Notes under the pieces: model-generated
What the model was told of the DNA's origin: nothing
Database searches by the model: none
Seen by the model: the letters and a program-made list of their open reading frames with translations, nothing else
Position numbers and translations under genes: made by a program
Part shown: piece by piece, positions 9,365-64,000 of the stretch
How the letters are laid out: the number at the start of each line of letters is the position of its first letter
How positions within the stretch are numbered: the stretch's first letter is position 1
From: Mucilaginibacter geliditolerans
GTDB lineage: Bacteria; Bacteroidota; Bacteroidia; Sphingobacteriales; Sphingobacteriaceae
DNA length: 64,000 nt
Assembly: GCF_014200495.1 (NCBI RefSeq)
Contig: NZ_JACHBY010000005.1
Location: forward strand, 124,001 to 188,000
Direction of reading: 5' to 3'

Positions 9365-9383
9365 GGATCACTAAAACCTAACA

Positions 9384-44169: not shown

Positions 44170-44754
44170 ATGATCGATACAGCACTCGATTTTATAAGCA
44201 AGCGACTGAATGCTTTTTTGCGTGTAAAATATCAGGATCAATCAAACTCCATTGACTATATTCAGCTTAATAATATAGCCTGGAATGACCAATCTATAAG
44301 TCAGCCGACCACCAATAATGCTTTTATAACACTGGTTAACATTGAAGAGGACAGGGTCAGTAAATCACCTGATAATTATATACGCACAAACACTGGTATA
44401 GTATACCAAAACCCCACCATATTTCTTAATCTATACGTGCTTTTTGCCGCCAATTTAAATTCTTACGAAGAATCATTAACGAGACTGTCTTACATCATCC
44501 AGTTTTTTCAGTTTCAAAATGTTTTTACAACGCTTGATTCCCCGGGGCTTCCGCAAGGGATCGATAAATTAATATTCGACCTGAAAACGCTCTCTTTCCA
44601 GGACTTGAATAACCTGTGGGGGATACTGGGCTCTAAATATTTGCCATCAGTGGTATATATACTCCGGCTGGTTACTATTACCAGCGACTTTGAAATGGGT
44701 AATGTGCCATTGCTGCATGAAATAGTTGTTAACGATAAAACCTTGCAGCAATGA
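44170..44754 (+). CDS. eCIS cap/terminator protein (DUF4255, Pvc16-like)
   Basis: A 194-aa protein of the DUF4255 family, which in PVC/Afp particles corresponds to Pvc16/Afp16, the tail-completion cap that ends tube and sheath growth. Visible family features: MIDTALDFISKRLNAFLRVKY at the front, then AFITLVNIEEDR, NPTIFLNLYVLFAANLNSYEESLTRLSYIIQFFQFQNVFT and the closing VVYILRLVTITSDF. It is the first gene of the operon here, whereas in classical PVC loci the cap gene lies at the 3' end. Its stop overlaps the next start (ATGA). Confidence 0.9.
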   Translation: MIDTALDFISKRLNAFLRVKYQDQSNSIDYIQLNNIAWNDQSISQPTTNNAFITLVNIEEDRVSKSPDNYIRTNTGIVYQNPTIFLNLYVLFAANLNSYEESLTRLSYIIQFFQFQNVFTTLDSPGLPQGIDKLIFDLKTLSFQDLNNLWGILGSKYLPSVVYILRLVTITSDFEMGNVPLLHEIVVNDKTLQQ

Positions 44755-45935
44755 TAGATGTAAATTTTAAGTTATTATTCACACTTCAAATATTACATAA
44801 GTATTATTTTGCTGATCAGGTATGCAATGATTTTAGCATTACATCATCATCCCCAACAAATACTGTTGCCAGCGGCCACCGGCTTGTAATAAGGCAATAC
44901 AATAATCAATTATATGTTGGAACACAGTTTATTAACATACAGCCACCACCGCCGCCCAACCAGGATGCTCCTTTAGTACCGATAGAACAAGGGATGCAAA
45001 TGACCTTTTATATGTGGCTCAATAATCCCTTGTTTTTTAATTATACCAACCTGCCTTCATCATATGATACCAGTAAAATATATTATTTCACCAATCGGAA
45101 TAATAACAATATCCCGGGGATGAACTTTTTATCGGCCCCGAAAGGCAGCTTACTGTACAATAGCGCCAATACCTATTTACCAGGCGATATTGCTGCAAAT
45201 AGTGCCGGAATGGTCTTCAGTGCTATTGCCCCCAGCGATCAGGCCAATCAGCATGGGTTGAGTGATACTGCTTTTTGGGTACAGGTTGATAACAATAGCT
45301 ATGCATCGGCCGCTGATGTTTTGCAATGGAGGTTTTCAGTATCAACCTATAGTTTTCAGGCGGCACAGCCAGGCGCTGCTATAGCTGTTTCGGGCTATAA
45401 TGCGGCTACTAATGATTATACACTTTCGGTACTGGCAAGCACCATAACATTTAGCAGCCCGGCATTATCGTTCCCGCTTGATCTTACATCATTAAAACCC
45501 GGTAAGTACCTGCTTACGGTAAATGCTGATCCACCACAATGGATTTATATAAATGATGAGCTAAACACCTCCCGGCCATTTGCGGTAATAGATATTTTTA
45601 ATGAGGCGAGTCCGGCATCATGCAACCTGGTTGATACCAACGGGTACATTTTGTCGCCCGCGTACGCCATCTATTTTATGAACCGGGCAACCAAATGGAA
45701 ATACATTATCAACAGCGGCAACAGCTATAGCATAACCGATGGCGCTAATGTATACCAGTTTACGGCGGCGGCAAGTACAGTAACCTCATTAACTCCTATA
45801 CCCTTAAGCGATCAGCCGTTGGATATGAAGGTAAATATTAACAGCCATGCTATATGCGTAGCAAGTGCTGACCCGCAGCGGTTAGCCTCTGCGGGCGACA
45901 GCTATTTGTACTCAGAAATATATTTAAATTATTAA
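44751..45935 (+). CDS. eCIS-associated protein of unknown function (394 aa)
   Basis: A 394-aa protein with no signal peptide and no family I recognise. It overlaps the cap gene by 4 bp and lies 12 bp before the sheath gene, so it is surely part of the particle operon. It is beta-rich, with a Pro-rich linker (NIQPPPPPNQD, about residue 63) and a segment YLPGDIAANSAGMVFSAIAPSD...DTAFWVQVDNNSYASAADV (about 143-190) that resembles the short Y-x-x-GD...G-x-V-Y-x-A...F-W modules of carbohydrate-binding and tail-fibre proteins. A structural adaptor, fibre or cap-associated role is plausible; none is demonstrated. Confidence 0.75.
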   Translation: MIDVNFKLLFTLQILHKYYFADQVCNDFSITSSSPTNTVASGHRLVIRQYNNQLYVGTQFINIQPPPPPNQDAPLVPIEQGMQMTFYMWLNNPLFFNYTNLPSSYDTSKIYYFTNRNNNNIPGMNFLSAPKGSLLYNSANTYLPGDIAANSAGMVFSAIAPSDQANQHGLSDTAFWVQVDNNSYASAADVLQWRFSVSTYSFQAAQPGAAIAVSGYNAATNDYTLSVLASTITFSSPALSFPLDLTSLKPGKYLLTVNADPPQWIYINDELNTSRPFAVIDIFNEASPASCNLVDTNGYILSPAYAIYFMNRATKWKYIINSGNSYSITDGANVYQFTAAASTVTSLTPIPLSDQPLDMKVNINSHAICVASADPQRLASAGDSYLYSEIYLNY

Positions 45936-45947
45936 AATCAAAAACAT

Positions 45948-47933
45948 ATGTCACAAATAAACGAAAGCGCTATTCAAACCCCCGGGGTTTATGTAAATGA
46001 GATTCCATCATTTCCGCCATCAATCGCGCAGGTGGCTACAGCAATACCGGCATTTATAGGGTACACGGCTTTTGCAATTGATTCAAATGGCAATAACGTA
46101 ACTAACGTGGCTGTAAGGATATCCTCGCTGGTTGAATTTGTAACCTATTTTGGTACAGGAGCACCCAATTTAACGGCCACCGTTGATCTAAATGCGGACA
46201 ATAGCGTTGGATCGGTCGTAATTTCACCGTCGTTCCAGTTATTCAATGCCATGTGCATGTTTTTTAACAATGGCGGGGCCGATTGCTACATTATTTCAGT
46301 AGCTCCTTACCCGGCGGCGGGTGCCAATATATTGGATTTTGTTAATGGCGCCAGTTTAACACCCATGTGCCTTGATGTATTGAAAAAGGAAGATGAACCT
46401 ACGCTGATAGTTATACCCGACGCGGTGTTGCTGGGTAATGATTATTATACCCTGGCGCAATTGGTATTGCTGCAATGTGCAAATCTTCAGGATCGCTTTG
46501 CAATTTTTGACATTCCGAATGGTATCCTGCCACGCACATATGATAATAATGATGTTGTAACTGTATTCAGAAATGGAATAGGCAGTATAAACCTAAATTA
46601 TGGAGCCGTTTATTACCCCTACCTTAAAACAAGTTTACCGGTTACTATAGGTTTCAATAATATATCATTAACCCAGGTACATATTCCTACTACATTAAAC
46701 GCAGTTGTAGGCGGCAATAATTTTGTTACTCAAATAATGAATACAGCTGCTGATTTTAACGCAGTTGTTACTACAATGGCACTGGCGCCCAGCTTAACCA
46801 ATAATACCTTACCACCCAATATTGTGTTAAAAGCCGATCTGATAAAGGCGGTAACAGCAATTGACAATGTTATTAAGGCATTTATTACACCTGCTGTTGC
46901 AATTACTGATACTACAGCGGCACCAACTACTCCTCCAACGCCTCCGGGTAAAACTATTAGCGGTATTTACCTGGGTTATACACAAGCCAGTACTACGCCA
47001 CCACCATTTACAGCCCTTGAAATCTTAATGGGACAACTGGCTCTTATTGATACGCAATATCCCGGTGGCAAATTAAATGTGGTAAAAACGGCTACAGATT
47101 TTCCATCATATAACATTCCGGGCGCTGCAGTTATTTTACCTGCGGGTATAACAAGCATTTATGGCAACACAGCACCTACAGATCCGGTTGGATTTATAAG
47201 GGCTACAGTTATCGCGTTGTATGGTAAAGTAGTAGGCATGATCACCAGCTTTTATAACGATTCATTAAACCTGATGAATGGTTTGGAGCAGCAGATAATT
47301 TCATCAAGCGGTATTTATGCCAATATAAAAACAGCTATAACCAATACGGGCATAATTGTTCCGCCAAGTGGTGCTATGGCGGGTGTTTACGCGGCTGTTG
47401 ACAGCTCGCGCGGGGTATGGAAAGCCCCTGCCAACGTAAGCCTCAATACGGTTATAGCCCCTGTAGTTAATATCGATGATGATACCCAGGGCGATCTGAA
47501 TATTGATACCAACGCAGGTAAATCAGTGAATGCCATACGAGCATTTACAGGCAAGGGTACCCTGGTTTGGGGAGCACGCACACTTGATGGTAACAGTAAC
47601 GATTTCAGGTACATATCCGTACGCCGTTTTTATATAATGGTTGAGGAATCGGTAAAACTGGCTGCCATGCAGTTTGTGTTCGAACCGAACGATGGCACTA
47701 CCTGGGTAAGGATCCGCGCCATGATAGAGAACTACCTCACTAACCTTTGGCGTTTGGGCGCTTTAGCAGGCTCAAAACCCGAGCAATCGTTTTATGTGAA
47801 AGTAGGCTTAGGGCAAACCATGGTGTTTGATGATATACTAAATGGCCGCCTGATAGTTGAAATTGGTATGGCGCCCGTTCGCCCTGCTGAGTTCATCATT
47901 CTGCGCTTCTCACAAATACAGCAAACTTCTTAA
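45948..47933 (+). CDS. eCIS contractile tail sheath protein (Pvc2-4-like)
   Basis: A 661-aa sheath protein. N terminus IQTPGVYVNEIPSFPPSIAQVATAIPAFIGYT is the conserved linker arm and beta-strand entry of phage and eCIS sheaths. The C-terminal sheath domain is clear: DFRYISVRRFYIMVEESVKLAAMQFVFEPNDGTTWVRIRAMIENYLTNLWRLGALAGSKPEQSFYVKVG...NGRLIVEIGMAPVRPAEFIILRFSQI. Residues about 270-480 form a variable insertion with Pro/Thr-rich loops (APTTPPTPPGKTISG), likely surface exposed. Only one sheath gene is present in the window, against three in Afp/PVC. Confidence 0.95.
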   Translation: MSQINESAIQTPGVYVNEIPSFPPSIAQVATAIPAFIGYTAFAIDSNGNNVTNVAVRISSLVEFVTYFGTGAPNLTATVDLNADNSVGSVVISPSFQLFNAMCMFFNNGGADCYIISVAPYPAAGANILDFVNGASLTPMCLDVLKKEDEPTLIVIPDAVLLGNDYYTLAQLVLLQCANLQDRFAIFDIPNGILPRTYDNNDVVTVFRNGIGSINLNYGAVYYPYLKTSLPVTIGFNNISLTQVHIPTTLNAVVGGNNFVTQIMNTAADFNAVVTTMALAPSLTNNTLPPNIVLKADLIKAVTAIDNVIKAFITPAVAITDTTAAPTTPPTPPGKTISGIYLGYTQASTTPPPFTALEILMGQLALIDTQYPGGKLNVVKTATDFPSYNIPGAAVILPAGITSIYGNTAPTDPVGFIRATVIALYGKVVGMITSFYNDSLNLMNGLEQQIISSSGIYANIKTAITNTGIIVPPSGAMAGVYAAVDSSRGVWKAPANVSLNTVIAPVVNIDDDTQGDLNIDTNAGKSVNAIRAFTGKGTLVWGARTLDGNSNDFRYISVRRFYIMVEESVKLAAMQFVFEPNDGTTWVRIRAMIENYLTNLWRLGALAGSKPEQSFYVKVGLGQTMVFDDILNGRLIVEIGMAPVRPAEFIILRFSQIQQTS

Positions 47934-47973
47934 TTCCTTATCTAATCAATTCACATACTTAAATTAAAATATT

Positions 47974-48408
47974 ATGGCAGCTAATTATCCACTACCCAAG
48001 TTTCACTTTAGTGTTGATTGGGGAGGTACACGCATAGGTTTTACCGATGTAAGCGGACTTGACATAACAAACGACATTATAGAATACCGCGATGGCGCGA
48101 GCCCTGAGTATCACAAAATAAAAATGCCCGGGCAACGTAAGTTCAGCAACATATCGCTTAAACGCGGTGTATTTAAATCAGACAATGATTATTATAACTG
48201 GTTCAACACCATTAATATGAATACGGTTGAGCGCCGCGATATAACCATCAGTCTGCTTGATGAAACGCTTGCGCCGGTTATAGTATGGAAGATCAAAAAT
48301 GCATGGCCAACAAAAGTTACCTCAACCGATCTGAAAGCTGATGGTAATGAGGTTGCCATTGAAACGCTTGAACTTGCACACGAGGGCCTCACCATACAAA
48401 ATGATTAA
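47974..48408 (+). CDS. eCIS inner tube protein 1 (T4 gp19-like)
   Basis: A 144-aa Hcp/gp19-fold tube protein: PLPKFHFSVDWGGTRIGFTDVSGLDITNDIIEYRDGASPEYHKIKMPGQRKFSNISLKRGVFKSDNDYYNWFNTI..., then RRDITISLLDETLAPVIVWKIKNAWPTKVTSTDLKADGNEVAIETLELAHEGLTI. This is the standard length and motif set of the Pvc1/Pvc5 tube family (phage tail protein, conserved KMPGQRK loop). It should form hexameric rings inside the sheath and be the main tube subunit. It is 40 bp after the sheath gene and 2 bp before the second tube gene. Confidence 0.95.
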   Translation: MAANYPLPKFHFSVDWGGTRIGFTDVSGLDITNDIIEYRDGASPEYHKIKMPGQRKFSNISLKRGVFKSDNDYYNWFNTINMNTVERRDITISLLDETLAPVIVWKIKNAWPTKVTSTDLKADGNEVAIETLELAHEGLTIQND

Positions 48409-48410
48409 CC

Positions 48411-48941
48411 ATGTTTGATTATCCATTTACCGGGTTTCACTTTGTGGTGATGTTCGAGATATTTCCGCAGTTGCCTAACGATTTCCGTTTTCAGGATGTC
48501 ACGGGGCTAAGTGTGGATGTAAACCTCGATACTTATCCCGAAGGTGGGGAAAATCGCTTTGTTCATCGTTTGCCCGGCCGTAATAAATACGCCGACCTGG
48601 TTTTAAAGCGGGGGATGACACTGGTATCGGGCGTTACCGCGTGGTGTTTGGATTGTATTGAAAACTTCAATTATCAGCCAACCAACATGATCGTATCGCT
48701 TTTAAATGAGGATCATTTGCCGGTATCATCATGGTATATAACCAATGCCATCCCCATAAGGTATGAGGTCTCGGGCCTTGATGCTATGCAAAACCAGATA
48801 GTTATTGAATCCATGACGCTGCGGTACGAGTACTACCGGACACTCAACCTTTCAGCCGCTGTAGATGCTGCTGTTGGGGCGGTTGCCGGCTTGCTTGGTG
48901 GTGGCAGCGCTGCGGCAACAGTAACCATATCGGTGCCTTAA
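48411..48941 (+). CDS. eCIS inner tube protein 2 (T4 gp19-like)
   Basis: A 176-aa second gp19-family protein: PFTGFHFVVMFEIFPQLPNDFRFQDVTGLSVDVNLDTYPEGGENRFVHRLPGRNKYADLVLKRGMTLVSGVTAWC...NMIVSLLNEDHLPVSSWYITNAIPIRYEVSGLDAMQNQIVIESMTLRYEYYRTL. It has a longer Ala/Gly-rich C-terminal tail (AAVDAAVGAVAGLLGGGSAAATVTISVP) than tube 1. In PVC/Afp particles the second tube paralogue (Pvc5/Afp5) sits at the baseplate end as an adaptor layer; by analogy this is its role here. Confidence 0.93.
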   Translation: MFDYPFTGFHFVVMFEIFPQLPNDFRFQDVTGLSVDVNLDTYPEGGENRFVHRLPGRNKYADLVLKRGMTLVSGVTAWCLDCIENFNYQPTNMIVSLLNEDHLPVSSWYITNAIPIRYEVSGLDAMQNQIVIESMTLRYEYYRTLNLSAAVDAAVGAVAGLLGGGSAAATVTISVP

Positions 48942-48971
48942 AATGCACCATAACCAATTAATATAAATACC

Positions 48972-49142
48972 ATGCCAGTTGAAATACGCGAATTGCAAAT
49001 TACAGCCAATGTACAGGATGGTGGTAGTAAACCATCCTCCGGCTCCTCGTCAAAAGGGGCTTCAGGCGGTGGATCTGATGATATGATCGCTAAATGTGTT
49101 GAACAGGTGCTCGATATTTTAAGAGAAAAAAATGAACGCTGA
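48972..49142 (+). CDS. DUF5908 mini-protein of the eCIS operon
   Basis: A 56-aa protein read directly from the sequence: it starts MPVEIRELQITANVQ and ends AKCVEQVLDILREKNER, joined by a Ser/Gly-rich linker (GGSKPSSGSSSKGASGGGSDD). The M-P-x-E-I-R-E-L start and the amphipathic C-terminal helix are characteristic of DUF5908, a tiny family seen almost only in Bacteroidota contractile-injection loci between tube and LysM genes. The stop codon overlaps the following start by one base (TGATG), so translation is coupled. Two short ordered ends joined by a flexible linker suggest a tether or chaperone-like peptide; function unknown. Confidence 0.88.
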   Translation: MPVEIRELQITANVQDGGSKPSSGSSSKGASGGGSDDMIAKCVEQVLDILREKNER

Positions 49143-49870
49143 TGAGTAGTACAGGTGAATTACTGAAAATGCAGATCGTAGCTTACGACGATGATAGTTT
49201 CTCATCGGCTACAGGGCCCGATTATGTTTATGAGGTATTGATCAACCCTGATTCATACGCGCTTACTTATGCCTCAATAATTAATGATAAAAGTACGCAG
49301 GGTTCAAGCGAAAGTACGGTCACCCAAAATAAAAGGGCTCCGCAAACGGTAACTTTTAAGTTTTTGTTTGATGGTACAGGCGTAATACAAAGGGGCGGAG
49401 GCGGGTTACTGTCGGGCCTGGCGGTGCCGGGTTTACCCACCAACAAGCCTGATGTAATGCAGGATTATGAAAAGTTTAAAAGTGTAGTTTATCAATATGG
49501 CAGCGATACGCACCAGCCACGCTATGTGCAGTTGCAATGGGGATCATTGATGTACAATTGTCAGATGATTAACATGACCATCACTTTTAAGCTGTTTAAC
49601 CCTGATGGAACACCCTTACGCGCTGAAGCCAACTGTACCTTTCAGAGTGTAATTAATGAAACTACACTGGCTGCCATTGAAAACCGGCAGTCGCCTGATT
49701 TAACACATGTAAGAACTGTAGGCGCGGGCGATACACTGCCTTTGCTTTGCTATAAGCAGTATGGGGATAGCCGGTATTATTACCAGATAGCACAATTTAA
49801 CAGGCTTACAGATTTTAAAAAATTGATACCGGGGGCGAAAATTATTTTTCCTCCTATTACTACAAGCTAA
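49142..49870 (+). CDS. eCIS LysM-containing tube-baseplate protein (Pvc7-like)
   Basis: A 242-aa protein with the CIS tube/LysM N-terminal domain (YEVLINPDSYALTYASIINDKSTQGSSESTVTQNKRAPQTVTFKFLFDGTGVI, about residues 26-80) and a C-terminal LysM fold (RTVGAGDTLPLLCYKQYGDSRYYYQIAQFNRLTDFKKLIPGAKIIFPPI, about 190-238). It corresponds to Pvc7/Afp7 and phage T4 gp53-type proteins, which glue spike, tube adaptor and wedge together rather than bind peptidoglycan. Its start overlaps the DUF5908 stop, and it ends 2 bp before the spike gene. Confidence 0.92.
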   Translation: MSSTGELLKMQIVAYDDDSFSSATGPDYVYEVLINPDSYALTYASIINDKSTQGSSESTVTQNKRAPQTVTFKFLFDGTGVIQRGGGGLLSGLAVPGLPTNKPDVMQDYEKFKSVVYQYGSDTHQPRYVQLQWGSLMYNCQMINMTITFKLFNPDGTPLRAEANCTFQSVINETTLAAIENRQSPDLTHVRTVGAGDTLPLLCYKQYGDSRYYYQIAQFNRLTDFKKLIPGAKIIFPPITTS

Positions 49871-49872
49871 TT

Positions 49873-51669
49873 ATGCCGTTAAGCCAAACACTACCCGGAA
49901 CACAAAAAACCGACCTGGTTACCTACACCATTAAGGTAAATGGTACTGCTCTTGGTACAACGTATAAGGTTGCCTCAATGAGTTTTACCAACGAGATAAA
50001 CCGTATACCTATGGCTAAGATCATAATTAATGATGGTGACCCGGCTAAACAGGATTTTCCGGTGAGCAACGAGGCTACTTTTATACCGGGTTCTACCATT
50101 GATGTTACAGTTGGCTACCACTCTGATGAGTCGCCCATATTTAGCGGGATAATTTTAAGGCATAGCATCAAAATAAGGAACAGTGGTTCACCAATTCTGG
50201 TATTGGATTGCCGGGATAAAGCTGTACAAATGACCGTCGCCCGCAAAAATAAATACTTCTACAATCAAAAGGATAGTGATGCCGCCAGCGAGATCATTGG
50301 TAATTATGGCTTAACAGCAGCTATTGAAGATACCAGCGCACAACTGGAATCAATTGTACAATATGATAGTACCGACTGGGATTTCATTGTATCGCGCATG
50401 GAGGCGAATGGAAAACTCTGCACGGTAAACAATGGAACTGTCACCGCAAAAAAGCCTGATTTTACTACCGCAACGGTTTTAGATGCTGTATTTGGCGCTA
50501 CTATGGTTGAGTTTGATGCCGATCTGGATGCCCGTAACCAATACCAAAGCATCGTAGCCAAAACCTGGGATTATACCACCCAGGCAGTAGCCACGGCCAG
50601 CGCCGCAGAACCGGGTTTCACTGAAAATGGTAACCTATCAAGCAGCGATTTGGGCAGCGTGCTCAACATTGCCGAATATGATCTCTATTCGGGTGAAGAT
50701 GTAACTTCAGATGAACTGCAAAGCCTGGCTGATTCGCGTTTACTGAAAGCGCGCCTATCGCGTTGCAGGGGAAGGGTTCGTTTTCGGGGTTATGGTGGCG
50801 AGTTAAGTCCCGGTGATTTGATAAACATCGGTGGTGTTGGCGACAGGTTCAATGGCCCGGTATTTATATCGGCCGTAAGGCATGATATCACCGAAGGTAA
50901 ATGGAATACCGATGTGCAGTTTGGTATGTCGAATGATTTGTTTATGGCGCAGCCGGATATAAATTCAGCACCGGCAGGCAATATGCTGCCTGCTATACAA
51001 GGCTTGCAAATAGGTGTAGTTACCGATCTGGAAAGTGACCCCGACAGCCAGGACCGCATCCGTGTGCGATTGCCAATCATCGATGCAAACGAGGATGGCG
51101 TTTGGAGCCGCATAGCCAGCTTGGATGCCGGTAATAACCGGGGTATGTTTTTTCGCCCGGAGATTGGTGATGAGGTAATAGTTGGGTTTTTAAATAACGA
51201 TCCCCGGCACCCGGTAGTACTGGGCATGCTGAACAGCAGCGTTAAACCTGCGCCCTTAAAAGGTTCAAACCAAAATGATGAAAAGGGTTATACATCGCGC
51301 AGCGGAATGACCATGATGTTCAATGATTCTGAAAAATCAGTAAAGATCCAAACTCCCGCAGGCAAAAAATTAACCCTTAGCGAGCAGGATGGCGTGATAG
51401 ATATTGAGGATGAGAACGGTAATAAGTTTTCAATGGACTCATCATCCATAACCATGCAAAGTGCAGCGGATATAAACATAACAGCAAGCGGTGATTTGAA
51501 TGTTACCGCTACCAATATAAATCTCACTCCTTCATCCAGCTTAGCGGTAAGCGCAGGCGGGGCCACAATAAATGCGGGGAGTGGCAGTGCAAGCATATCG
51601 GCACCATCAGTAAGTGTTGAGGGTTCGGGCACGGCAACAATAAAAGGCGGGATTGTAATGATCAATTAA
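49873..51669 (+). CDS. eCIS spike protein (VgrG-like, Pvc8-like)
   Basis: A 598-aa spike. The N-terminal gp27-like part (residues about 10-370) includes SFTNEINRIPMAKIIINDGDPAKQDFPVSNEATFIPGSTIDVTVGYHSDESPIFSGIILRHS. The gp5-type OB fold begins about residue 375 (LQIGVVTDLESDPDSQDRIRVRLPIIDANEDGVWSRIASLDAGNNRGMFFRPEIGDEVIVGFLNNDPRHPVVLGML). The triple-stranded beta-helix tail has repeated short strands (KSVKIQTPAGKKLTLSEQDGVIDIEDENGNKFSMDSSSITMQSAADINITASGDLNVTATNINL...). Family-normal length with no C-terminal toxin extension, so the effector should be separate. The PAAR tip protein follows 13 bp later. Confidence 0.95.
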   Translation: MPLSQTLPGTQKTDLVTYTIKVNGTALGTTYKVASMSFTNEINRIPMAKIIINDGDPAKQDFPVSNEATFIPGSTIDVTVGYHSDESPIFSGIILRHSIKIRNSGSPILVLDCRDKAVQMTVARKNKYFYNQKDSDAASEIIGNYGLTAAIEDTSAQLESIVQYDSTDWDFIVSRMEANGKLCTVNNGTVTAKKPDFTTATVLDAVFGATMVEFDADLDARNQYQSIVAKTWDYTTQAVATASAAEPGFTENGNLSSSDLGSVLNIAEYDLYSGEDVTSDELQSLADSRLLKARLSRCRGRVRFRGYGGELSPGDLINIGGVGDRFNGPVFISAVRHDITEGKWNTDVQFGMSNDLFMAQPDINSAPAGNMLPAIQGLQIGVVTDLESDPDSQDRIRVRLPIIDANEDGVWSRIASLDAGNNRGMFFRPEIGDEVIVGFLNNDPRHPVVLGMLNSSVKPAPLKGSNQNDEKGYTSRSGMTMMFNDSEKSVKIQTPAGKKLTLSEQDGVIDIEDENGNKFSMDSSSITMQSAADINITASGDLNVTATNINLTPSSSLAVSAGGATINAGSGSASISAPSVSVEGSGTATIKGGIVMIN

Positions 51670-51682
51670 ACAAAGAAAAATT

Positions 51683-51973
51683 ATGCCATTTGCAGCACGG
51701 GTTTCAGATATGCACGTTTGCCCAATGTTCACCGGGCCAGTACCTCATGTAGGCGGGCCTGTGTTGCCGCCATGCAGCCCAACAGTATTAATTGGCGGTC
51801 TGCCGGCAGCCTGTGTTGGCGACATGTGTGTTTGCGCTGGTCCGCCGGACGTGATTGCCATGGGCTCATCAACGGTATTAATTGGGGGTAAACCTGCGGC
51901 CCGCATGGGCGATATAACCGCGCATGGCGGTACAATAGTTTTAGGATGTCCAACTGTAATTATAGGAGGCTAA
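51683..51973 (+). CDS. PAAR-domain spike tip protein (Pvc10-like)
   Basis: A 96-aa protein consisting solely of a PAAR fold: repeated P-x-V-x-I-G-G-x-P-A-A turns (SPTVLIGGLPAACVGDMCVCAGPPDVIAMGSSTVLIGGKPAARMGDITAHGGTIVLGCPTVIIGG), which build the cone that caps the spike. Several Cys/His residues (His and Cys in DMHVCPM, DMCVC, AHGG, LGC) are suited to the Zn site of PAAR tips. There is no effector extension. It sits between spike and gp25 genes with 13-bp and 1-bp gaps. Confidence 0.95.
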   Translation: MPFAARVSDMHVCPMFTGPVPHVGGPVLPPCSPTVLIGGLPAACVGDMCVCAGPPDVIAMGSSTVLIGGKPAARMGDITAHGGTIVLGCPTVIIGG

Positions 51974-51974
51974 A

Positions 51975-55948: not shown

Positions 55949-58900
55949 AGACTTTATAGATAAAAACCCGGTATTAACCACCGATCAGGACTATGCTGCC
56001 CTCCGTGCAAAAGGTTTGCATTATATTGAGGAGCTGAGCCATAAGTACTGGACGGACTACAATGAGCATGACCCCGGCATTACCATTATGGAGGCCCTGT
56101 GCTATGCCATTACCGAGCTGGGCTATCGCATTGACTTGCCTATGCAGGATCTGCTGACCAATCCTGATGGCACCATCCCCGACACGCAAACATTATTTAC
56201 CGCGAAAAATATCCTCACCCAATCGCCATTAACTATTGATGATTACCGTAAGTTGCTAATTGATATTGTTGGGATTGAGAACGCCTGGCTCACCGCTGTA
56301 GATTACAATACGGTTAATGGCGTAAACATTGCGGTAAATGAGGTACCCATTTATGCCGATTGCAGCGCGGATGCCTTATCCTATAATGTAACACCTCACC
56401 CGGTTTACCTGTCGGGTTTGTACCAGGTATTGCTTGATCTGGATGATGACGACCAACTCGGCGATTTGAACAATGGCGAAGTAGAAATATTAAACCCGGC
56501 ATTTGGTGCATTTACTGAGGGCGAGGTGAGTCTGACGATAGTTTTCCCGATATGGAATGATCCATCTGTTGAAAAATTATTACTGGCCAGTCCGGTAAAG
56601 GCAGCTAATGTGAGTGCCACTTTTAGTGCTGCCGGTAGCATTATCACTGCCACTATAAACGTTAAATATTCAATTGGCAGCGCGCACTATACCATAACAC
56701 TTACACCCATTGTAAACATTGATCTGCAGCCAGCGGATCAGACAATTGGCCCTGCCGAACTTGCGAACTTTTTTACGCCGGAGTTTACGGCCCAGGTGGT
56801 GAACCTGTACATTTTAAAGATCCAAAAGGCAAAGCATATCGTTCAAAAGGCAATCCGTAAACTGAACAAGAACCGCAACCTGTGCGAGGATTTTGTAAGT
56901 GTTACTACCATAAAAGATGAGGAAATAGCCTTTTGCTGTGACATTGATATAACGCCATCAACTGATATGTCGGAGGTGCAGGCCGAAGTGTTTTTTGCCA
57001 TTGAGGAATACCTGAATCCACCGGTAAACTTTTACCTGCTGAGCGAAATGCAGGCCATGGGCTACACTACTGATGAGATCTTCTCGGGCCCGGTTTTAAA
57101 GCATGGCTTTATTGATACGGTGCAGTTGGAGCAAACCCAGTTAAAAACGGAGATCTATGCCTCAGAGATCATCAGCCTGATTATGAATATTGAAGGCGTA
57201 CTGGCTGTGCGCAGTTTCAGGATGACGAAGTATGGCGCCGATGATCAGCCTGTAACAGGTGAAACCAATAAAAGCTGGTGTATGCCGATCACATTGGGGT
57301 GTAAACCTGTTTTTTCGGAAACCAAATCAAAAATGGTATTCTATAAAAACCAGTTCCCGTACCTGCCAAATATGGATGAGGTGAATGATATTTTGCGCTG
57401 GCTGCGAGCCACACGGGCACACAACAAGCTTTCGGGCCATGAGGATGATATCGCTATCCCGTCAGGCACTTATTTTCCGCTGGATGGCTATACTTCTGTC
57501 GAGGAACTTTTCCCGGTAACTTATGGAATTGGGCAACCGGGTCTGCCGCCAACAGCTACCGTCCAGCAAAGGGCGCAGGCGAAACAATTACAGGCTTACC
57601 TATTGCTGTATGACCAGTTACTGGCTGATTTCCTGTCCCAACTGGCAAATGCCAAAGAACTGTTCTCGACCGATGCAACGGTGCAAACCTATTACGCCCA
57701 GTTTATTGACAGCGTAAAAAATATCATGCTCATTTACAAACAGGATAGCAGCTCAAAAACCATTAATGAACTGGTAATGCAAAACCAGGATTCTGCAAGC
57801 ACAACGGTAAACGACTGGCAAACTTTATACGAAACAAATGAGCTTTTTCTTAACCGCCGGAACAGCTTCCTTGATCACCTGATGAGCCGCTTTGCCGAAT
57901 CGTTCAATGAATATGTTTTGCTCATGTATAGCCTGGATTATACCACGCAGCAGGAAACCGGCATCACCCTCGCCAGTATGATCGAGGATAAGATCGAGTT
58001 TTTACAGGATTACCCGGTGATGAGTTATGAGCGGGGCCGTGCCTATAACTATTTCCCGCAAAAGCATGATTTTAAAATTGATACTGCCAAATTATGGAAT
58101 ACCGATAATGTAGCAGGAGTTGAAAGAAAGTTGAGTCACCTTGGCGGTTTTAAGAGTAATGTTCCGGGTGTTGAAGCATATTTTCGCAGGTTTTTATATT
58201 GTATTGGCAATGCGACCATCACATCCAGCGGCACGCCTGCCAAATACAACTTTGTATTTACCGAGGGCGCAAACGCGCTTACATCTGTAACAAGTTACAA
58301 TAGCAATGCGAAAGCACAAAAGGCATTGCCCGCGTTTATGGACCTGCTGTTGGCAACAGACAACTACGCCATCAGCCAAACCGGCACCAACTGGAATGTT
58401 TACGTAGTTGATAATAATGGCGTTAACCAGGCTATCAGCAATAATTTTTCATTGGAGGCAGATGCCGAAACAGCCATGGCACAGTTCATCGTCACATTCA
58501 GCACCATGTGCGATAGTGAGGGGCTGCACCTTATTGAGCATGTTTTACTGAGGCCACGCGATAATACTTTCGACCTTGCGCCGGTATGCCTTGATCCCAA
58601 CTGCGATTTTTGTGGCGATGAAGATCCATACTCGTTCCGCATTTCGGTGGTGATGCCTTACTGGCCGGCTCATTTCCGGAGCATGGCTTTCAGGGAGTAT
58701 TTTGAGGATATCGTTCGCCAGGAAGTACCTGCTCATACCATTGTTAAAGTTTGCTGGATAAATGATGAATCCATGTATGAATTTGAGCGGGAATACAAGG
58801 TATGGATAACGGCGCTGGCCAATTATTCATTAGATAAGGTAACCAGCCTGCACAAATTCGAGGTCGCCAATAATAAACTGCTGAAGCTGCTCTTTAGTCT

Positions 58901-59003
58901 GCATAGCGAATACCCGGTGGCTACCCTGCATGATTGTGAGGATAGCCAGGGCACCAACCCGGTACAATTAGGAAAAACTGTTTTAGGATCTTATAAAACT
59001 TGA
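55941..59003 (+). CDS. eCIS second large baseplate wedge protein (Pvc12-like)
   Basis: A 1020-aa protein opening with the wedge motif ELSHKYWTDYNEHDPGITIMEALCYAITELGYRIDLPM (about residues 32-69), whose Y-N-x-H-D-P-G-I-T core is typical of gp6/J-family baseplate proteins. Residues about 750-850 contain two short repeats (PAKYNFVFTEGANALTSVTSYNSNAKAQKAL and GTNWNVYVVDNNGVNQAISNNFSLEADAETAMAQFI) that look like tandem DUF1508/YegP-type modules. Then HLIEHVLLRPR and a Cys cluster (CLDPNCDFCGDED). It overlaps the Pvc11-like gene by 8 bp and is 3 bp from the next gene. Confidence 0.85.
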   Translation: MDKDFIDKNPVLTTDQDYAALRAKGLHYIEELSHKYWTDYNEHDPGITIMEALCYAITELGYRIDLPMQDLLTNPDGTIPDTQTLFTAKNILTQSPLTIDDYRKLLIDIVGIENAWLTAVDYNTVNGVNIAVNEVPIYADCSADALSYNVTPHPVYLSGLYQVLLDLDDDDQLGDLNNGEVEILNPAFGAFTEGEVSLTIVFPIWNDPSVEKLLLASPVKAANVSATFSAAGSIITATINVKYSIGSAHYTITLTPIVNIDLQPADQTIGPAELANFFTPEFTAQVVNLYILKIQKAKHIVQKAIRKLNKNRNLCEDFVSVTTIKDEEIAFCCDIDITPSTDMSEVQAEVFFAIEEYLNPPVNFYLLSEMQAMGYTTDEIFSGPVLKHGFIDTVQLEQTQLKTEIYASEIISLIMNIEGVLAVRSFRMTKYGADDQPVTGETNKSWCMPITLGCKPVFSETKSKMVFYKNQFPYLPNMDEVNDILRWLRATRAHNKLSGHEDDIAIPSGTYFPLDGYTSVEELFPVTYGIGQPGLPPTATVQQRAQAKQLQAYLLLYDQLLADFLSQLANAKELFSTDATVQTYYAQFIDSVKNIMLIYKQDSSSKTINELVMQNQDSASTTVNDWQTLYETNELFLNRRNSFLDHLMSRFAESFNEYVLLMYSLDYTTQQETGITLASMIEDKIEFLQDYPVMSYERGRAYNYFPQKHDFKIDTAKLWNTDNVAGVERKLSHLGGFKSNVPGVEAYFRRFLYCIGNATITSSGTPAKYNFVFTEGANALTSVTSYNSNAKAQKALPAFMDLLLATDNYAISQTGTNWNVYVVDNNGVNQAISNNFSLEADAETAMAQFIVTFSTMCDSEGLHLIEHVLLRPRDNTFDLAPVCLDPNCDFCGDEDPYSFRISVVMPYWPAHFRSMAFREYFEDIVRQEVPAHTIVKVCWINDESMYEFEREYKVWITALANYSLDKVTSLHKFEVANNKLLKLLFSLHSEYPVATLHDCEDSQGTNPVQLGKTVLGSYKT

Positions 59004-59006
59004 GAT

Positions 59007-62000
59007 ATGATAAATTCAAATGAATACATCTTCTTTGAAGCGGATCAGGTGCTCACTAACGACCACCTGAATGAGTCATTCAATTACCTGGATCACCAGG
59101 CCCGCTGGACACGCAACAAGCTGATTGGGATAGGTATTGCTTGTGGCCTGGAGATAGTTATTCACAGCAATGGTATTGAAATAACCAAGGGCTGTGGGGT
59201 TACATCTCAGGGTTACCTTATTGTGCAGCCAAAGGAAAAGTATACCTGGTACATGAACTATTCGCAGATAGCGATCCCTGCTGACCTGCCCTTTAAGCAT
59301 GGCACCGACCTGCCTTTTTATGAAGGTTATGGTACCAGTGGTACGCAGATCTATTTGTTGCTTACGGATGATCAGCAAAAGGCGCTTGAACCAGCCAAAA
59401 AAGCCAGCGCAGTAGTCATAAATACTACCAATGGATTTTTGGATGATTACGCGGTAGCCTTGTTTCTGGAAGCAAAGGAAACCGACCTCAAGAATTGCGA
59501 TATGCTGGATTGCAATAATATGGGCGAAAAAATGGTGTTTACTGTAAGGCCGCTGCTGGTGCCTACAGCCGATCTGCTCACATTAAGAAACGGATTGCCC
59601 GATAAGATCACATTAACCAAGAATGATTATCAGATCAACCTGAAACGTTACAATGTGCCTTACAAACCATTAAAAACAAGCATAGAGGTTTTAGAGGCAT
59701 TTTATGCAATTGTTGACAATGCTGTTTTAACTGAGTTAAGCGATGCCTTAAATTATCTGTATGATGAATACGGCGCCCTGTTAAAGCTCAACACAAATCC
59801 TTTTGTGTTTTTGCTGGCGGAGCTGAAATTAATGCGGGAACGCATATTTAAGGAAGTGCCGTATTTTATAGAATATTTCTATGATTTTATAGATGACCTG
59901 ATCAAAGGCTATTATGAGCTTTCGGAAAAAGTAGCCGGCCTGTCGGAATGTTGCCCGGATGTTAACCTGTTCCCGCTGCATCTCATATTGGGCAGCGCTT
60001 CGCAATCAACCGACGCATTTTTAAAAGACCCTTACCGTGATTACTTTATATACTCCGGTCTATTCTCAAAAATGGATGGCGATGCCGCTGAAGCAACGCT
60101 GTTGTTTAAGCGCATAATTGTAATGCTTCGGGAGTTTGCCATACAAACAGAAAAGACCATCATCATAACACCGAGCCAATATGAATGGCCACCGCTTTCG
60201 GCACGGGCCATACCTTATTACTATTTTAAAACAGGTGTCTACGCTAAACCCTTTAATACAGAAGAGATTAATAAAGTACTTAAATTAACAGGCAAAGGAG
60301 GTACCGAATTATACAAGTATTGGAACTACGAGAAAACCCTTAAAAAGGAAGAAACCTTAAACCTGAGCTACCATGCCAATAGCTATACCAGCAAAAAACC
60401 TGTAGTAGACCCGCTTTTGTATGATATAGAAAAGTATAACTTTTTTAGGATAGAGGGCCATATCGGCCAAAATTACAGGATCGCCTTAGAGCGCATACTA
60501 TTGCAACGTGCTGAATATAACCTGCCCTTTGATGTAGTAGCTGTATCGGCAGATCAGTTGCGCTTAAGCGCTCCGCTACCAGAATGCAGCATGCAGGACC
60601 TGGATACGGCTTATAAGCTGATAATAGGCGATGCTGCCTGTAAAATCCACACCCTATTTTGCTATATCTCAAGTCAGCCTTTCAGGTCTGGTTATGATGA
60701 GGCCGGTAATGATGGAACTGTAATAGTTGATAAGGCTCAGGAAACTACAGCGCATCCGGAAATCGACCAGGGGGTATACACTTTAAACAATGGAAGTTTT
60801 TCAAGCTATAAGGTTAGGGGCGCATTGGAGTTTGAAACGCCGATAACTATCAGCGCGACCTATAAACGAGGTGATTTTTTAAGGAAAAATTGCCCCCCTG
60901 CTGAAAGTACATTAGGCTGGACTTACTTACGGTCGTTAGACAGTAAAGGAGAGTTTAGAAACCCCTTACAATCAAGCCTGGTGCGCGCAAAGGACAATCA
61001 ATTGCTTGTTGCTGAATATCACTTCTTTCAGTTTATAGAATTTGTTGAGGACCTGATGTTCGTTTTATACACTCATACCCTGGCCGAAATTAATATTGAA
61101 TTGCTGGTGAGGATATACCGTGAGTATCTGGAAATGGCCGTAATAGTGATCAGGCTGCTGTTAGAGGCTGCCGACGAGGATGCTGATAATAGCACTACCG
61201 ATGCCGCCGGCAATACTACTGATTATGTTTCATTTGATGAATCGGGCGAACTGATACTGCTTAACGATGAGCTGAGTTTGCTGCTTTCCATGTGTGTTGA
61301 TGAACGTATAGATGTATTAAAAAGGGAATATATGCTGCGGCTCCGCAACTATCAGCAGCAGCTTACATTTTTTAACTACTATAAAAAGCACCCGGGCCTG
61401 GAGCATAAGGCAGGCGTACCCAAAGGCGGCACATTTGTACTGGTTTATGACGGCGAATCACGTGAGTTGCGTGAACCGGTTAACGCGGTAGGCATTACTG
61501 TAGAGCGGGGAAGCGCAGAGGTATTAGGTACTACAACTGGTGAGCCTGTAGCCACACCATCGCCGTACAGCACGGAGCTTACTAAAATGATCATGAAGTT
61601 TGTTGAAGATTGTAAAGATGCGCCGCCAAAAACAAAAACGCCAATTATCACCGCGTTAAACCCGCCGGTAATTGGAACGAGGCGCGGATTAACCGAAGGC
61701 GCGGTAATAGCTGATTTTTATATTCCTTACCTCTGCTGTTCGGATTGCCCGCCGGTGGCCTATATTATGCCCGAGCCAAGGCCGTTAAAAACTGTTAAAC
61801 CAATTAAGCCTGTAGAACAGCCTACCATAAATGCGGCAGGCCCTTTTTGCAGTAATGATAGTAGTACAGCGCAACTCAGCGGCACGCCAACCGGCGGCAC
61901 ATTTGGCGATAGTACGGGGGCGGCAATAACAGGCATAAATTCCGATGGGTCATTTGTGCCTGCTAATTTAGCGGCGGGCTCCTATGATATTTATTATACT

Positions 62001-62369
62001 GTGGCGCGTGTAACATCTGCTAAAACTACTATAGTTATAACTGATGCCGGGAGTGATTTTACATTCCCGGCCGAGGTTAATGGTGTGCAGCCATCAGAAA
62101 TTGAGTTCGATGCAAGTAATGTTGAAAGCGGGGTTACTTACCAATGGCAGATCACCCCTGAGAATAAACAATTAAAGGCTAAAGATTCAACTACAGATTC
62201 AAAATTCCTGGCGATACTAAGTCCGCAGGTGCAAAATGAGAACCCCGACGGCGTTTCAGTAACACTTACAATAGCAAATGGTGCTTGTAAAAGTGCTACC
62301 ACTAAAACCTTTAAATTCACTATTAATGATAGCCAAAGTGGCGTTACTGTAACCCAACTAGGTAGCTAA
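59007..62369 (+). CDS. Large eCIS-operon protein with Ig/PKD-like C-terminal domains (1120 aa)
   Basis: A 1120-aa protein between the second wedge gene and the tape-measure gene (3-bp gaps on both sides). The N terminus NEYIFFEADQVLTNDHLNESFNYLDHQARWTRNKLIGIGIACGLEIVIHSNGIEITKGCGVTSQGYLIV looks like a conserved tail/baseplate attachment domain. The middle (about 220-870) is mostly helical. After a Cys/Pro linker (CCSDCPPVAYIMPEPRPLKTVKPIKPVEQP) come two beta-sandwich-like modules, about 940-1010 (Ig-like; AGPFCSNDSSTAQLSGTPTGGTFGD) and 1010-1115 (PKD-like; VESGVTYQWQITPENK). Such modules usually mediate adhesion, so it may be the fibre or target-binding part. I do not recognise an established family name. 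Confidence 0.75.
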   Translation: MINSNEYIFFEADQVLTNDHLNESFNYLDHQARWTRNKLIGIGIACGLEIVIHSNGIEITKGCGVTSQGYLIVQPKEKYTWYMNYSQIAIPADLPFKHGTDLPFYEGYGTSGTQIYLLLTDDQQKALEPAKKASAVVINTTNGFLDDYAVALFLEAKETDLKNCDMLDCNNMGEKMVFTVRPLLVPTADLLTLRNGLPDKITLTKNDYQINLKRYNVPYKPLKTSIEVLEAFYAIVDNAVLTELSDALNYLYDEYGALLKLNTNPFVFLLAELKLMRERIFKEVPYFIEYFYDFIDDLIKGYYELSEKVAGLSECCPDVNLFPLHLILGSASQSTDAFLKDPYRDYFIYSGLFSKMDGDAAEATLLFKRIIVMLREFAIQTEKTIIITPSQYEWPPLSARAIPYYYFKTGVYAKPFNTEEINKVLKLTGKGGTELYKYWNYEKTLKKEETLNLSYHANSYTSKKPVVDPLLYDIEKYNFFRIEGHIGQNYRIALERILLQRAEYNLPFDVVAVSADQLRLSAPLPECSMQDLDTAYKLIIGDAACKIHTLFCYISSQPFRSGYDEAGNDGTVIVDKAQETTAHPEIDQGVYTLNNGSFSSYKVRGALEFETPITISATYKRGDFLRKNCPPAESTLGWTYLRSLDSKGEFRNPLQSSLVRAKDNQLLVAEYHFFQFIEFVEDLMFVLYTHTLAEINIELLVRIYREYLEMAVIVIRLLLEAADEDADNSTTDAAGNTTDYVSFDESGELILLNDELSLLLSMCVDERIDVLKREYMLRLRNYQQQLTFFNYYKKHPGLEHKAGVPKGGTFVLVYDGESRELREPVNAVGITVERGSAEVLGTTTGEPVATPSPYSTELTKMIMKFVEDCKDAPPKTKTPIITALNPPVIGTRRGLTEGAVIADFYIPYLCCSDCPPVAYIMPEPRPLKTVKPIKPVEQPTINAAGPFCSNDSSTAQLSGTPTGGTFGDSTGAAITGINSDGSFVPANLAAGSYDIYYTVARVTSAKTTIVITDAGSDFTFPAEVNGVQPSEIEFDASNVESGVTYQWQITPENKQLKAKDSTTDSKFLAILSPQVQNENPDGVSVTLTIANGACKSATTKTFKFTINDSQSGVTVTQLGS

Positions 62370-62372
62370 AAA

Positions 62373-64000
62373 ATGTTAAGGCACATCATCCACCGGCAAA
62401 AAATTATACTTAATCTCTCAAATAGGGAGTATGCAGGTGCTTTGCAGGCAAGTGTAAGCAACCTGATGCAGCATGATTTAAAGGTTGGTATTGATGCCGT
62501 TTTTAATAATGCTTTTCCCGAAGATAAAATTATACGCATTGATAAGTTGCAGCTTAACCTTGGCACCATAAACCAGCAGAACTTTGAGAACGAGTTTAAA
62601 GCGCAATTGCTGAGCGAACTGGCCAAAGGCTTATCGGAGCAAAAAGATAATTTAAGCTATGCCGATAGTGCCGAGGAGTTAAGTAAGGAGCAATCGTTGA
62701 TAAATGCCCTCATTTATTTTTTAGAGAAAGGTTATTTACCCTGGTACCAGGCAGCAACAACTACTATGGATGATTGGGAAACGGAGATCCTGAACAATTT
62801 CACAGCCCGCGAATACCAGCAGTTTTTTGATAGAATATTGCTAAAACACCATGCGAATGAGGCGATCATGCAGCGCCTGATTTTACAGTTCTCCGATAAG
62901 TTTTTAGGGGCATTGTTATCCGGCGCGATGCCAGAATTCGGCGTTTCATGGGAGCTGATCTATAACGATCTGGCGCTGATTGTACATAGCTTCAGTAGGC
63001 AAACAACAACTGTAGTACGCCACAAAATATGGCAGTATATTTTACAGGCTTTGCCCGATAAAAAGGGGAATGAGCTTAGTTACTATATTTTAGAACAGAG
63101 CGCAGTTTACTTTGGCATTAATAGCACTGTTATCAGCAATAAAAAACAGGATGAAATATTGGAAGGTCTGAAAACCGATATTATATACGCTGATTTTAAA
63201 AAACTGATCGTTTGTTTAAAACAAGAGATTAAGAAAGATCGGGGTGAAAAAAATGGAAAACCCGGTAAAAACACCAAGGCTTTTAGTGAAGAGCAAGGTA
63301 TAACAGATGAGGATAAAATTGCTGCTGATGGAAACATCGCCCTGGTTGATGAAGATATCGCTTTAGGAAATGACGGTACTATCCCGGATAATGAAACCGC
63401 TGCAATAAATGACCCGGGTATTGAAAATGAGGAACAAGCATCTGCAAAAAAGGAGAAGCCAAAAACAACGAAACGTAAAAGGGATGCACAGGTAATCGCC
63501 GGGGATGTAATATTTGTAAATAGCAGCGGGATAGTAATATTACACCCATTTTTAAAACCATATTTTGAGGGCCTGGAACTTTTTGCTGAAAAGAAATTTG
63601 TAAGCGACGAAGCCCGTCAGCGCGCAGTATTGCTGCTGCATTACCTGGCTACGGGCGAAACAAAGGTTGCCGAATTTAACCTCACGCTTCAAAAGGTAAT
63701 GTGCGGTTATCCGCTGGACGATACGCTGCCGGATGAGTTGTTGTTAACAGAAAAAGAGATCACCGAATCGGATAATTTATTATCCGCTGTAACTAATTAT
63801 TGGGTACCTTTAAATAACACATCTATACAAGGCTTACGCAACTCTTTTTTGCAGCGTGAAGGTAAGCTGGAACTAAGGGAGAACGGTTGGCTGCTCACCA
63901 TTGAGCAAAAGACACTGGATATATTACTGGGCAAACTGCCCTGGGGAATTTCAACCATCCGCCTGCCATGGATGGAACAGTTATTAAACGTGGATTGGTA
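62373..64000 (+). CDS. eCIS tape-measure protein (Pvc14-like), cut by window end
   Basis: The frame is open from ATG at 62373 to the last base (542 codons). MLRHIIHRQKIILNLSNREYAGALQASVSNLMQHDLKVGIDAVFNNAFPEDKIIRIDKLQLNLGTINQQNFENEFKAQLLSELAKGLSE is the conserved N terminus of CIS tape-measure proteins (CIS_TMP), and the internal SSGIVILHPFLKPYFEGLELF...RQRAVLLLHYLATGE repeat is diagnostic. A Glu/Asp/Lys-rich linker (about residues 290-370) separates the two parts. It sets tube length and fills the lumen; the C terminus and next genes (expected AAA+ ATPase, effectors) lie outside the window. Confidence 0.93.
   Translation, partial: MLRHIIHRQKIILNLSNREYAGALQASVSNLMQHDLKVGIDAVFNNAFPEDKIIRIDKLQLNLGTINQQNFENEFKAQLLSELAKGLSEQKDNLSYADSAEELSKEQSLINALIYFLEKGYLPWYQAATTTMDDWETEILNNFTAREYQQFFDRILLKHHANEAIMQRLILQFSDKFLGALLSGAMPEFGVSWELIYNDLALIVHSFSRQTTTVVRHKIWQYILQALPDKKGNELSYYILEQSAVYFGINSTVISNKKQDEILEGLKTDIIYADFKKLIVCLKQEIKKDRGEKNGKPGKNTKAFSEEQGITDEDKIAADGNIALVDEDIALGNDGTIPDNETAAINDPGIENEEQASAKKEKPKTTKRKRDAQVIAGDVIFVNSSGIVILHPFLKPYFEGLELFAEKKFVSDEARQRAVLLLHYLATGETKVAEFNLTLQKVMCGYPLDDTLPDELLLTEKEITESDNLLSAVTNYWVPLNNTSIQGLRNSFLQREGKLELRENGWLLTIEQKTLDILLGKLPWGISTIRLPWMEQLLNVDW

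What the first reader, a model, noticed from the sequence alone, without database searches (positions are those of the whole stretch)
44170..64000. A Bacteroidota extracellular contractile injection system operon
Fourteen same-strand genes with gaps of 40 bp or less, or short overlaps, encode cap, sheath, two tubes, LysM glue, spike, PAAR, gp25, two wedges and tape measure. There is no T6SS membrane complex (TssJLM), no TssK and no phage head, portal, terminase or integrase gene, which fits a PVC/Afp/AlgoCIS-type particle. The tape-measure gene is truncated by the window, so ATPase and effectors should follow.
Basis: partly seen in the sequence, partly recalled or inferred. Interest (0 to 1): 0.8.

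Follow-up and report, generated by a model that had tools for sequence, protein, structure and literature searches.

The report
Phage-tail-like protein injector with four cargoes
A bacterium of the genus Mucilaginibacter carries a complete set of genes for a syringe-like particle descended from a virus tail, with four proteins that it probably injects; the machine is of a known type, but its cargoes point to a delivery tag and a rearranged enzyme that can now be tested.

Summary
Fourteen intact same-strand genes from 44170 to the window end (gaps of 40 bp or less) encode a contractile injection system. Sheath, long wedge, cap adaptor and fibre match AlgoCIS and Anabaena tCIS, so it is an AlgoCIS-type (clade Ib) eCIS rather than PVC/Afp. 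TssK is absent from the genome. As a machine it is a new member of a known kind.

The cargoes are more interesting. All four share a conserved leader; one has it without the DUF4157 'eCIS core'. Comparison splits the leader: an ExxAD helix that mostly goes with the core (probable third zinc ligand) and an FF.P/QR element that also stays on coreless cargo (candidate loading tag). The genome holds a second CIS whose cargoes carry ExxAD after, not before, HExxH. None of 64 ATPase-bearing loci mixes the two cargo orders in the pieces fetched. Zinc geometry and loading were not tested.

The parts
44170..44754 (+). cap protein (Pvc16_N; Alg16A-like), 194 aa
   Evidence: Pfam PF14065 3e-30
44751..45935 (+). 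cap adaptor (Alg16B/Cis16B-like), 394 aa
   Evidence: PDB 7b5i All3326 1.1e-15; 7adz cap adaptor 0.002
45948..47933 (+). contractile sheath, 661 aa
   Evidence: Pfam PF17482 1.9e-17; PDB 7adz 4.9e-120
47974..48408 (+). inner tube, 144 aa
   Evidence: Pfam PF06841 4.9e-49
48411..48941 (+). second tube protein (tube initiator, Cis5-like by place), 176 aa
   Evidence: Pfam PF06841 1.1e-35
48972..49142 (+). spike plug (Alg6/Cis6-like by place and family), 56 aa
   Evidence: ORF; Pfam DUF5908 2.7e-18
49142..49870 (+). CIS tube protein with LysM-like tail (Alg7-like), 242 aa
   Evidence: Pfam PF19266 4.1e-45; LysM-like tail weak
49873..51669 (+). VgrG-like spike, 598 aa
   Evidence: Pfam PF04717 1.5e-22; TIGR01646 4.9e-72
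51683..51973 (+). PAAR tip, 96 aa
   Evidence: Pfam PF05488 4.2e-28
51975..52382 (+). gp25-like baseplate protein, 135 aa
   Evidence: Pfam PF04965 7.4e-25
52382..55948 (+). baseplate wedge with cage-length insert (Alg11/Cis11-like), 1188 aa
   Evidence: PDB All3317 2.7e-137 and AlgoCIS entry 7aeb 1.4e-126
55941..59003 (+). second baseplate wedge (Alg12-like by place), 1020 aa
   Evidence: weak TIGR02243 8.6e-6; place
59007..62369 (+). fibre/crown protein (Alg19/Cis19-like), 1120 aa
   Evidence: PDB 9wt0 8.8e-58; All3314 4.7e-44
62373..64000 (+). tape measure, 543 aa; its stop codon ends 4 bp beyond the window. The operon goes on outside the window (L003; add 60000 for window numbering): cargo E1 L003:4015-5190, 86-aa gene 5203-5463, cargo E2 5511-6464, cargo E3 6499-7893, cargo E4 7962-8765, AAA ATPase 8772-10073
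   Evidence: Pfam PF19268 1.5e-126 on L003:2373-4001; PF13699 in E1-E3, AAA 3.5e-28; ORFs; leader; E4 without PF13699

Best explanation
A complete AlgoCIS-type (clade Ib) extracellular contractile injection system with four cargoes. Shown by sequence: the structural parts, four leader-bearing cargo genes and an AAA ATPase in one intact operon. Inferred from AlgoCIS and PVC: the ATPase feeds cargo into the tube during assembly; free particles form in the cytoplasm, leave on lysis, bind through the Alg19-type fibre, open the cage, contract and release the cargo. Inferred, about 0.5: the shared leader has two parts. Its ExxAD helix supplies the third zinc ligand to the HExxH of the eCIS core, making a gluzincin whose order is permuted relative to the cargoes of the cell's second CIS. 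Its FF.P/QR element is the loading tag, which is why it is also found on cargo such as E4 that has no core. Prey are probably bacteria (about 0.6).
For: Parts and order. Closest solved sheath AlgoCIS 4.9e-120. No TssK in the genome. Leader and machine go together: 47 of 49 leader-positive relatives carry the CIS tape measure against 23 of the other 149. In 13 of 13 loci with both ends visible the leader genes lie between tape measure and ATPase (loci chosen for strong leader hits). Two-part leader: ExxAD kept in 55 of 56 core-bearing and 5 of 8 coreless leader proteins, FF.P and QR in 8 of 8 by definition of that set. Third ligand: ExxAD profile found beside the core in 231 of 253 cargoes, 0 of 253 after shuffling, before it in type A (209 of 235) and after it in type B (18 of 18); a solved DUF4157-annotated gluzincin uses Glu983 after His939 (PMC6899460, passages). 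Bacterial prey: OmpA-like peptidoglycan-binding fold in E3; cargo of Mucilaginibacter sp. OK098 (EAT4) and Parafilimonas (EAT6) killed E. coli and not yeast (PMC8213781, passages).
Against: No particle, loading or release was observed. No lysis gene was recognised among the products scanned. Four of the operon's 20 proteins slightly exceed the classical hydropathy line of 1.6 over 19 residues (PAAR 1.73, tape measure 1.69, sheath 1.62, fibre 1.61), so the absence of an anchor is not proved. 22 of 235 type-A cargoes have no ExxAD hit on either side, one of them in close relative G026 (L047:5155-6360). Type B does not resemble M48 peptidases in hhalign (probability 5) although type A does (79). 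The effect of AlgoCIS Cgo1 in E. coli did not depend on its HExxH motifs (PMC8894135, passages). Many type-A loci were fetched by the leader, which inflates 'before' counts. FF.P/QR is conserved only in this clade and some other Bacteroidota cargo; distant type-A cargo keeps mainly the ExxAD half.
Confidence: 0.85

Rival explanations
1. The same machine is not released but works in the producer: anchored to a membrane (as tCIS or T6SSiv) or firing in the cytoplasm to kill its own cell (as in Streptomyces).
For: Cap adaptor, long wedge and fibre match Anabaena tCIS about as well as AlgoCIS. No lysis gene was recognised.
Against: tCIS is anchored by a Cis13 with a transmembrane helix and extended Cis12 (PMC8894136, parts 1 and 2); no separate Cis13-like gene lies in the operon and no protein shows a clear transmembrane stretch, though four lie just over 1.6. 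TssK is absent. Aasi_0556 homologues were not searched.
Confidence: 0.12
2. The whole leader, ExxAD helix included, is one loading signal; it has nothing to do with zinc.
For: Five of eight coreless leader proteins keep the ExxAD helix. The full leader has a single origin on the ATPase tree (91/76). Leaders within a genome are a little more alike than between genomes (0.640 against 0.601; 0 of 2000 label shuffles as high).
Against: Three coreless cargoes lack only that part or that part and what precedes it, and keep FF.P/QR. Distant cargoes keep it next to the core without FF.P/QR. It lies on the other side of the core in type B, odd for an N-terminal signal. The E3 model gives the helix pLDDT about 92 between disordered stretches.
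Confidence: 0.35
3. A domesticated phage tail of the R-tailocin kind that kills by membrane depolarisation and needs no cargo.
For: Shared sheath, tube, gp25 and wedge ancestry.
Against: Pyocin sheath matches only at 4.8e-4 against 4.9e-120 for AlgoCIS; a loader-type ATPase and four leader-bearing genes are in the operon.
Confidence: 0.02

Closest known systems
AlgoCIS of Algoriphagus machipongonensis (clade Ib eCIS; PMC8894135, parts 1-3 and passages; PMC13314943, part 1)
   Same: One sheath, short cap protein plus cap adaptor, plug, cage-length wedge, Alg19-type fibre, DUF4157 cargo, no T6SS membrane genes seen.
   Different: Four leader-bearing cargo genes instead of two, one of them without DUF4157; release not shown here.
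Anabaena tCIS (PMC8894136, parts 1 and 2)
   Same: Closest solved matches of cap adaptor and long wedge; Cis19-type crown protein.
   Different: No Cis13-like anchor gene recognised in the operon; the host genus has no thylakoids (recalled).
PVC and Afp (clade Ia)
   Same: Gene content in outline, AAA ATPase, cargo at the 3' end.
   Different: Here one sheath, cap adaptor, long wedge; a conserved leader instead of a signal without a detected conserved sequence.
VgrG2b C-terminal metallopeptidase (DUF4157-annotated gluzincin; PMC6899460, passages)
   Same: HExxH of the DUF4157 kind; a third glutamate zinc ligand is proposed here.
   Different: There the ligand follows HExxH (solved); in this operon's cargoes the candidate precedes it.

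Membership tests
AlgoCIS-type (clade Ib) eCIS | contractile core: sheath, tubes, LysM tube protein, spike, PAAR, gp25, two wedges, tape measure, cap | tested here: met
   second wedge only weakly
AlgoCIS-type (clade Ib) eCIS | cap adaptor and plug | tested here: met
   cap adaptor; plug family DUF5908 (identity with Alg6 by place)
AlgoCIS-type (clade Ib) eCIS | Alg11-type wedge with cage insert | tested here: met
   residues 266-1166 aligned to 109-1024 of the AlgoCIS chain, which spans the published cage region; cage not modelled
AlgoCIS-type (clade Ib) eCIS | Alg19/Cis19-type fibre | tested here: met
   that 9wt0 is the AlgoCIS fibre is inferred from sister entries
AlgoCIS-type (clade Ib) eCIS | DUF4157 cargo and AAA ATPase in the operon | tested here: met
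AlgoCIS-type (clade Ib) eCIS | free particles released into the medium | not testable with these tools
   needs EM and proteomics
T6SS (i-iii) | TssK adaptor | tested here: not met
   PF05936: no match in the genome; the control E. coli rings
T6SS (i-iii) | TssJLM membrane complex | not tested
   no genome-wide search; none among the proteins scanned
tCIS | Cis13 with transmembrane anchor | tested here: inconclusive
   no separate such gene recognised in the operon; hydropathy maxima 1.73 or lower; no profile of Cis13 was run
gluzincin metallopeptidase (cargo core) | HExxH | tested here: met
   HELTH in E1-E3
gluzincin metallopeptidase (cargo core) | third glutamate zinc ligand | tested here: inconclusive
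   ExxAD conserved beside the core in 231 of 253 cargoes; geometry not seen

The most novel reading that the evidence does not exclude
One cell holds two injection machines, each with its own cargo class: for this one a circularly permuted gluzincin (ExxAD before HExxH) behind a separable FF.P/QR loading tag, for the other the unpermuted order. Cargo is sorted by tag and cognate ATPase, and new toxins join the arsenal by fusing to the tag right after its QR, with or without the peptidase core.
Probability: 0.3. Interest if true: 0.75.

Novelty: new member of a known kind. Interest (0 to 1): 0.5.

Why it matters
How eCISs choose cargo is open. A 2024 study leaves undecided whether each PVC locus loads only its own cargo and where the key lies (PMC11495950, passages); [quoted passage not shown] Here a conserved leader, natural losses of its parts, cargo without DUF4157, and two CISs in one genome make both questions testable with deletions and reporter fusions.

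Tried and rejected
Rejected: E4 as a cargo whose core has merely diverged. The same C-terminal domain with its own HExxH is fused to a separate intact core in P0062, P0064 and P0067. Rejected: filing under PVC/Afp or tailocins.

Led nowhere: Pfam for the C-terminal pieces of E1-E4; PDB profile of the E1 domain and of type B; the type-B structure (mean pLDDT 45). The structure searches of E3 were filled by its OmpA-like domain, so its core and Cys-rich domain were barely tested. A phospholipase-A2 reading of the Cys-rich domain of E3 (conserved C..HD.CY) is recalled; no tool confirmed it. PADLOC IetA hits of the ATPase reflect the AAA domain. A first ExxAD count with a strict regular expression gave 26 of 196 type-A proteins with none; the profile count replaced it. 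Weak matches of the core to the M48 peptidase BepA (E 0.05-0.08) are suggestive only.

Dropped before counts: near-duplicates; cargoes without HExxH or with flanks under 60 or 50 residues (253 of 288 kept); ATPases outside 330-560 aa. Of 24 coreless ORFs only the 8 with an FF.P-type and a QR motif are called leader proteins; the other 16 are small genes, pieces cut by contig ends, or proteins with at most degenerate motifs (such as L052:6159-7139, L060:6449-7405, L054:3350-4126). One core-bearing ORF cut by a contig end (L053:5420-6349) is left out of '55 of 56'.
Full report
1. Where it is. The window is C5:124001-188000 of a 6.5-Mb genome in 26 contigs, rated 100% complete.

2. The observation. 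Fourteen genes on the + strand run from 44170 to the window end, spaced from an 8-bp overlap to 40 bp. Ten match a Pfam family above cut-off. Cap adaptor, first wedge and fibre match solved chains. The second wedge has a weak family hit and its place.

3. Downstream. 36 kb beyond the window were fetched and their ORFs listed. The tape measure stops 4 bp past the window. Then come E1 (391 aa), an 86-aa gene, E2 (317), E3 (464 from the ATG used here), E4 (267 from the ATG used here) and the AAA ATPase (433); a short-chain dehydrogenase follows. Their frames are open.

4. Type of machine. The sheath's best solved match is AlgoCIS (4.9e-120), then tCIS (1.1e-114) and the chain of 9r9h (3.6e-109); chains named Pvc or Afp follow at 6.6e-60 or weaker, pyocin at 4.8e-4. 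The first wedge aligns along the AlgoCIS chain over the published cage region (PMC8894135, part 3). The set equals that described for AlgoCIS: cap, cap adaptor, single sheath, plug, cage, Alg19 fibre, DUF4157 cargo. TssK is absent genome-wide. Hydropathy maxima are 1.73 or lower; four of 20 lie just over 1.6, in proteins that are soluble parts in other CISs (the last clause is recalled). A released particle is therefore likelier than an anchored one.

5. Cargo. E1, E2 and E3 carry PF13699 (3.8e-29, 9.9e-32, 5.4e-32); E4 does not. All four share a leader of about 55 residues with 20 invariant columns. As a profile it matches 49 of 198 relatives at E 0.001 or better, often only over its ExxAD half in the weaker ones; 47 of the 49 have the CIS tape measure, against 23 of the other 149. 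The two exceptions are G078, a fragmented assembly that does hold the ATPase, and G067.

6. Cargo arrays. In 15 genomes, this one included and the rest chosen for strong leader hits, 13 loci show both tape measure and ATPase, and in these 13 the leader genes lie between them. In many of the further loci the cargo lies beyond the ATPase instead. Of 81 ORFs in the arrays, 57 have the core and 24 do not; 8 of the 24 bear both an FF.P-type and a QR motif. In these eight, likeness to the leader stops at the QR, whereas most core-bearing cargoes go on with KC..C. Three of the eight (L047:4441-5136, L049:8390-9142, L059:7001-7921) lack the ExxAD helix. E4 and its G026 counterpart differ in just this region: E4 keeps the helix, the other has only FFKP..IQR. 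ExxAD is kept in 55 of 56 core-bearing and 5 of 8 coreless leader proteins (Fisher 0.005; the sequences are related, so this p is optimistic).

7. Second CIS. The genome holds another CIS on C2 with its own ATPase, a tape measure (open frame 694 aa) and four cargoes, and one cargo-like orphan on C4. Its cargo core is homologous to the first (hhalign probability 98.4; PF13699 in 11 of 11 type-B pieces), but the motif with ExEADxM follows HEAWHVVQQ instead of preceding HELTHVVQQ. A type-B profile splits hits in 199 genomes into full ones at 8.4e-35 or better and others at 4.1e-8 or worse; among the latter are three partial hits of another kind (G050, G061, G009).

8. Position test. A profile of the ExxAD segment was run on both sides of the core in 253 distinct cargoes. 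Type A: 209 before, 2 after, 2 both, 22 neither, of 235. Type B: 18 of 18 after. Shuffled flanks: 0 of 253. Most type-A loci were fetched through the leader or the tape measure. The least biased subset, 28 proteins found through their C-terminal domains, gives 20 before, 2 after, 1 both, 5 neither; of these five, P0006 shows an unscored EREAD after its core. By the regular expression, L124:8058-10442 and L166:4701-6131 have an imperfect motif before and a good one after the core; the profile still scores their first copy. M48 peptidases of relatives, picked by a pattern that demands both motifs, mostly read like ESEADRLG at the second; that this glutamate binds zinc in M48 is recalled. In VgrG2b, annotated DUF4157, the solved third ligand is Glu983, after His939 (PMC6899460, passages). 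I infer that ExxAD is the third ligand and that type A is a circular permutation. The type-A core resembles M48 with probability 79, type B with 5; the latter does not help.

10. Cargo class and ATPase. In a tree of 64 ATPases, 15 loci have the full leader, 28 other type-A cores, 17 type B and 4 no cargo in the fetched piece; none is mixed. The full leader needs one origin (support 91/76; 88% of bootstrap trees); all labels together need 7 changes against 30.6 in shuffles. Long branches are present, and physical linkage alone would give clustering, so this agrees with recognition of cargo by the ATPase without proving it.

11. Print. Search listings. Parts read: PMC13314943 (part 1), PMC8894135 (parts 1-3), PMC8894136 (parts 1-2). 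Passages only: PMC11297309, PMC8213781, PMC12923769, PMC11495950, PMC12210884, PMC6899460. In that library no paper holds both 'DUF4157' and 'circular permut', and 'DUF4157' with 'gluzincin' gave only PMC6899460; most subscription papers and all bioRxiv preprints are missing from it.

12. Verdict. The finding is right and its prediction came true. The machine is a new member of a known kind. The interest lies in the cargo, where two testable proposals follow: a permuted gluzincin core and a separable loading tag that may sort cargo between two machines.

Noticed in passing
G000 C2:72,000-104,500 (L043-L045): A second CIS operon with four type-B cargoes, its own ATPase and tape measure, and other baseplate-region genes (L044:6612-8108, L044:10498-12798) without a counterpart recognised in the first.
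   Followed up: partly
L046:9721-11523 (G000 C4): An orphan type-B cargo-like gene with no CIS gene recognised in the surrounding 20 kb.
   Followed up: no
relatives G002, G007, G009, G024, G040, G050, G076, G088 and others: Many type-B systems have long tape measures (about 980-1665 aa) with several partial, overlapping matches to the first half of CIS_TMP, as if that half were repeated; the short full-length ones are about 460-740 aa. May set particle length.
   Followed up: no
L003:4747-5187 (E1 C-terminal domain): A 147-aa domain without Pfam family is about 55-59% identical in proteins named as Solirubrobacteraceae, Nitrosomonas, Nitrospira and Frankia, with and without PF13699.
   Followed up: partly
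L003:5203-5463; L048:5026-5298; L050:5568-5885; L053:569-844; L061:8461-8835: Small genes of 86-124 aa sit between cargo genes in several arrays; they could be immunity proteins or chaperones.
   Followed up: no
window 43070-43933, minus strand: By eye an AraC-type regulator gene, divergent from the operon and 236 bp before its first gene.
   Followed up: no
L003:7426-7890 (E3 C-terminal domain): Cys-rich domain with many conserved cysteines and a C..HD.CY motif; resembles secreted phospholipase A2 by recall only.
   Followed up: partly
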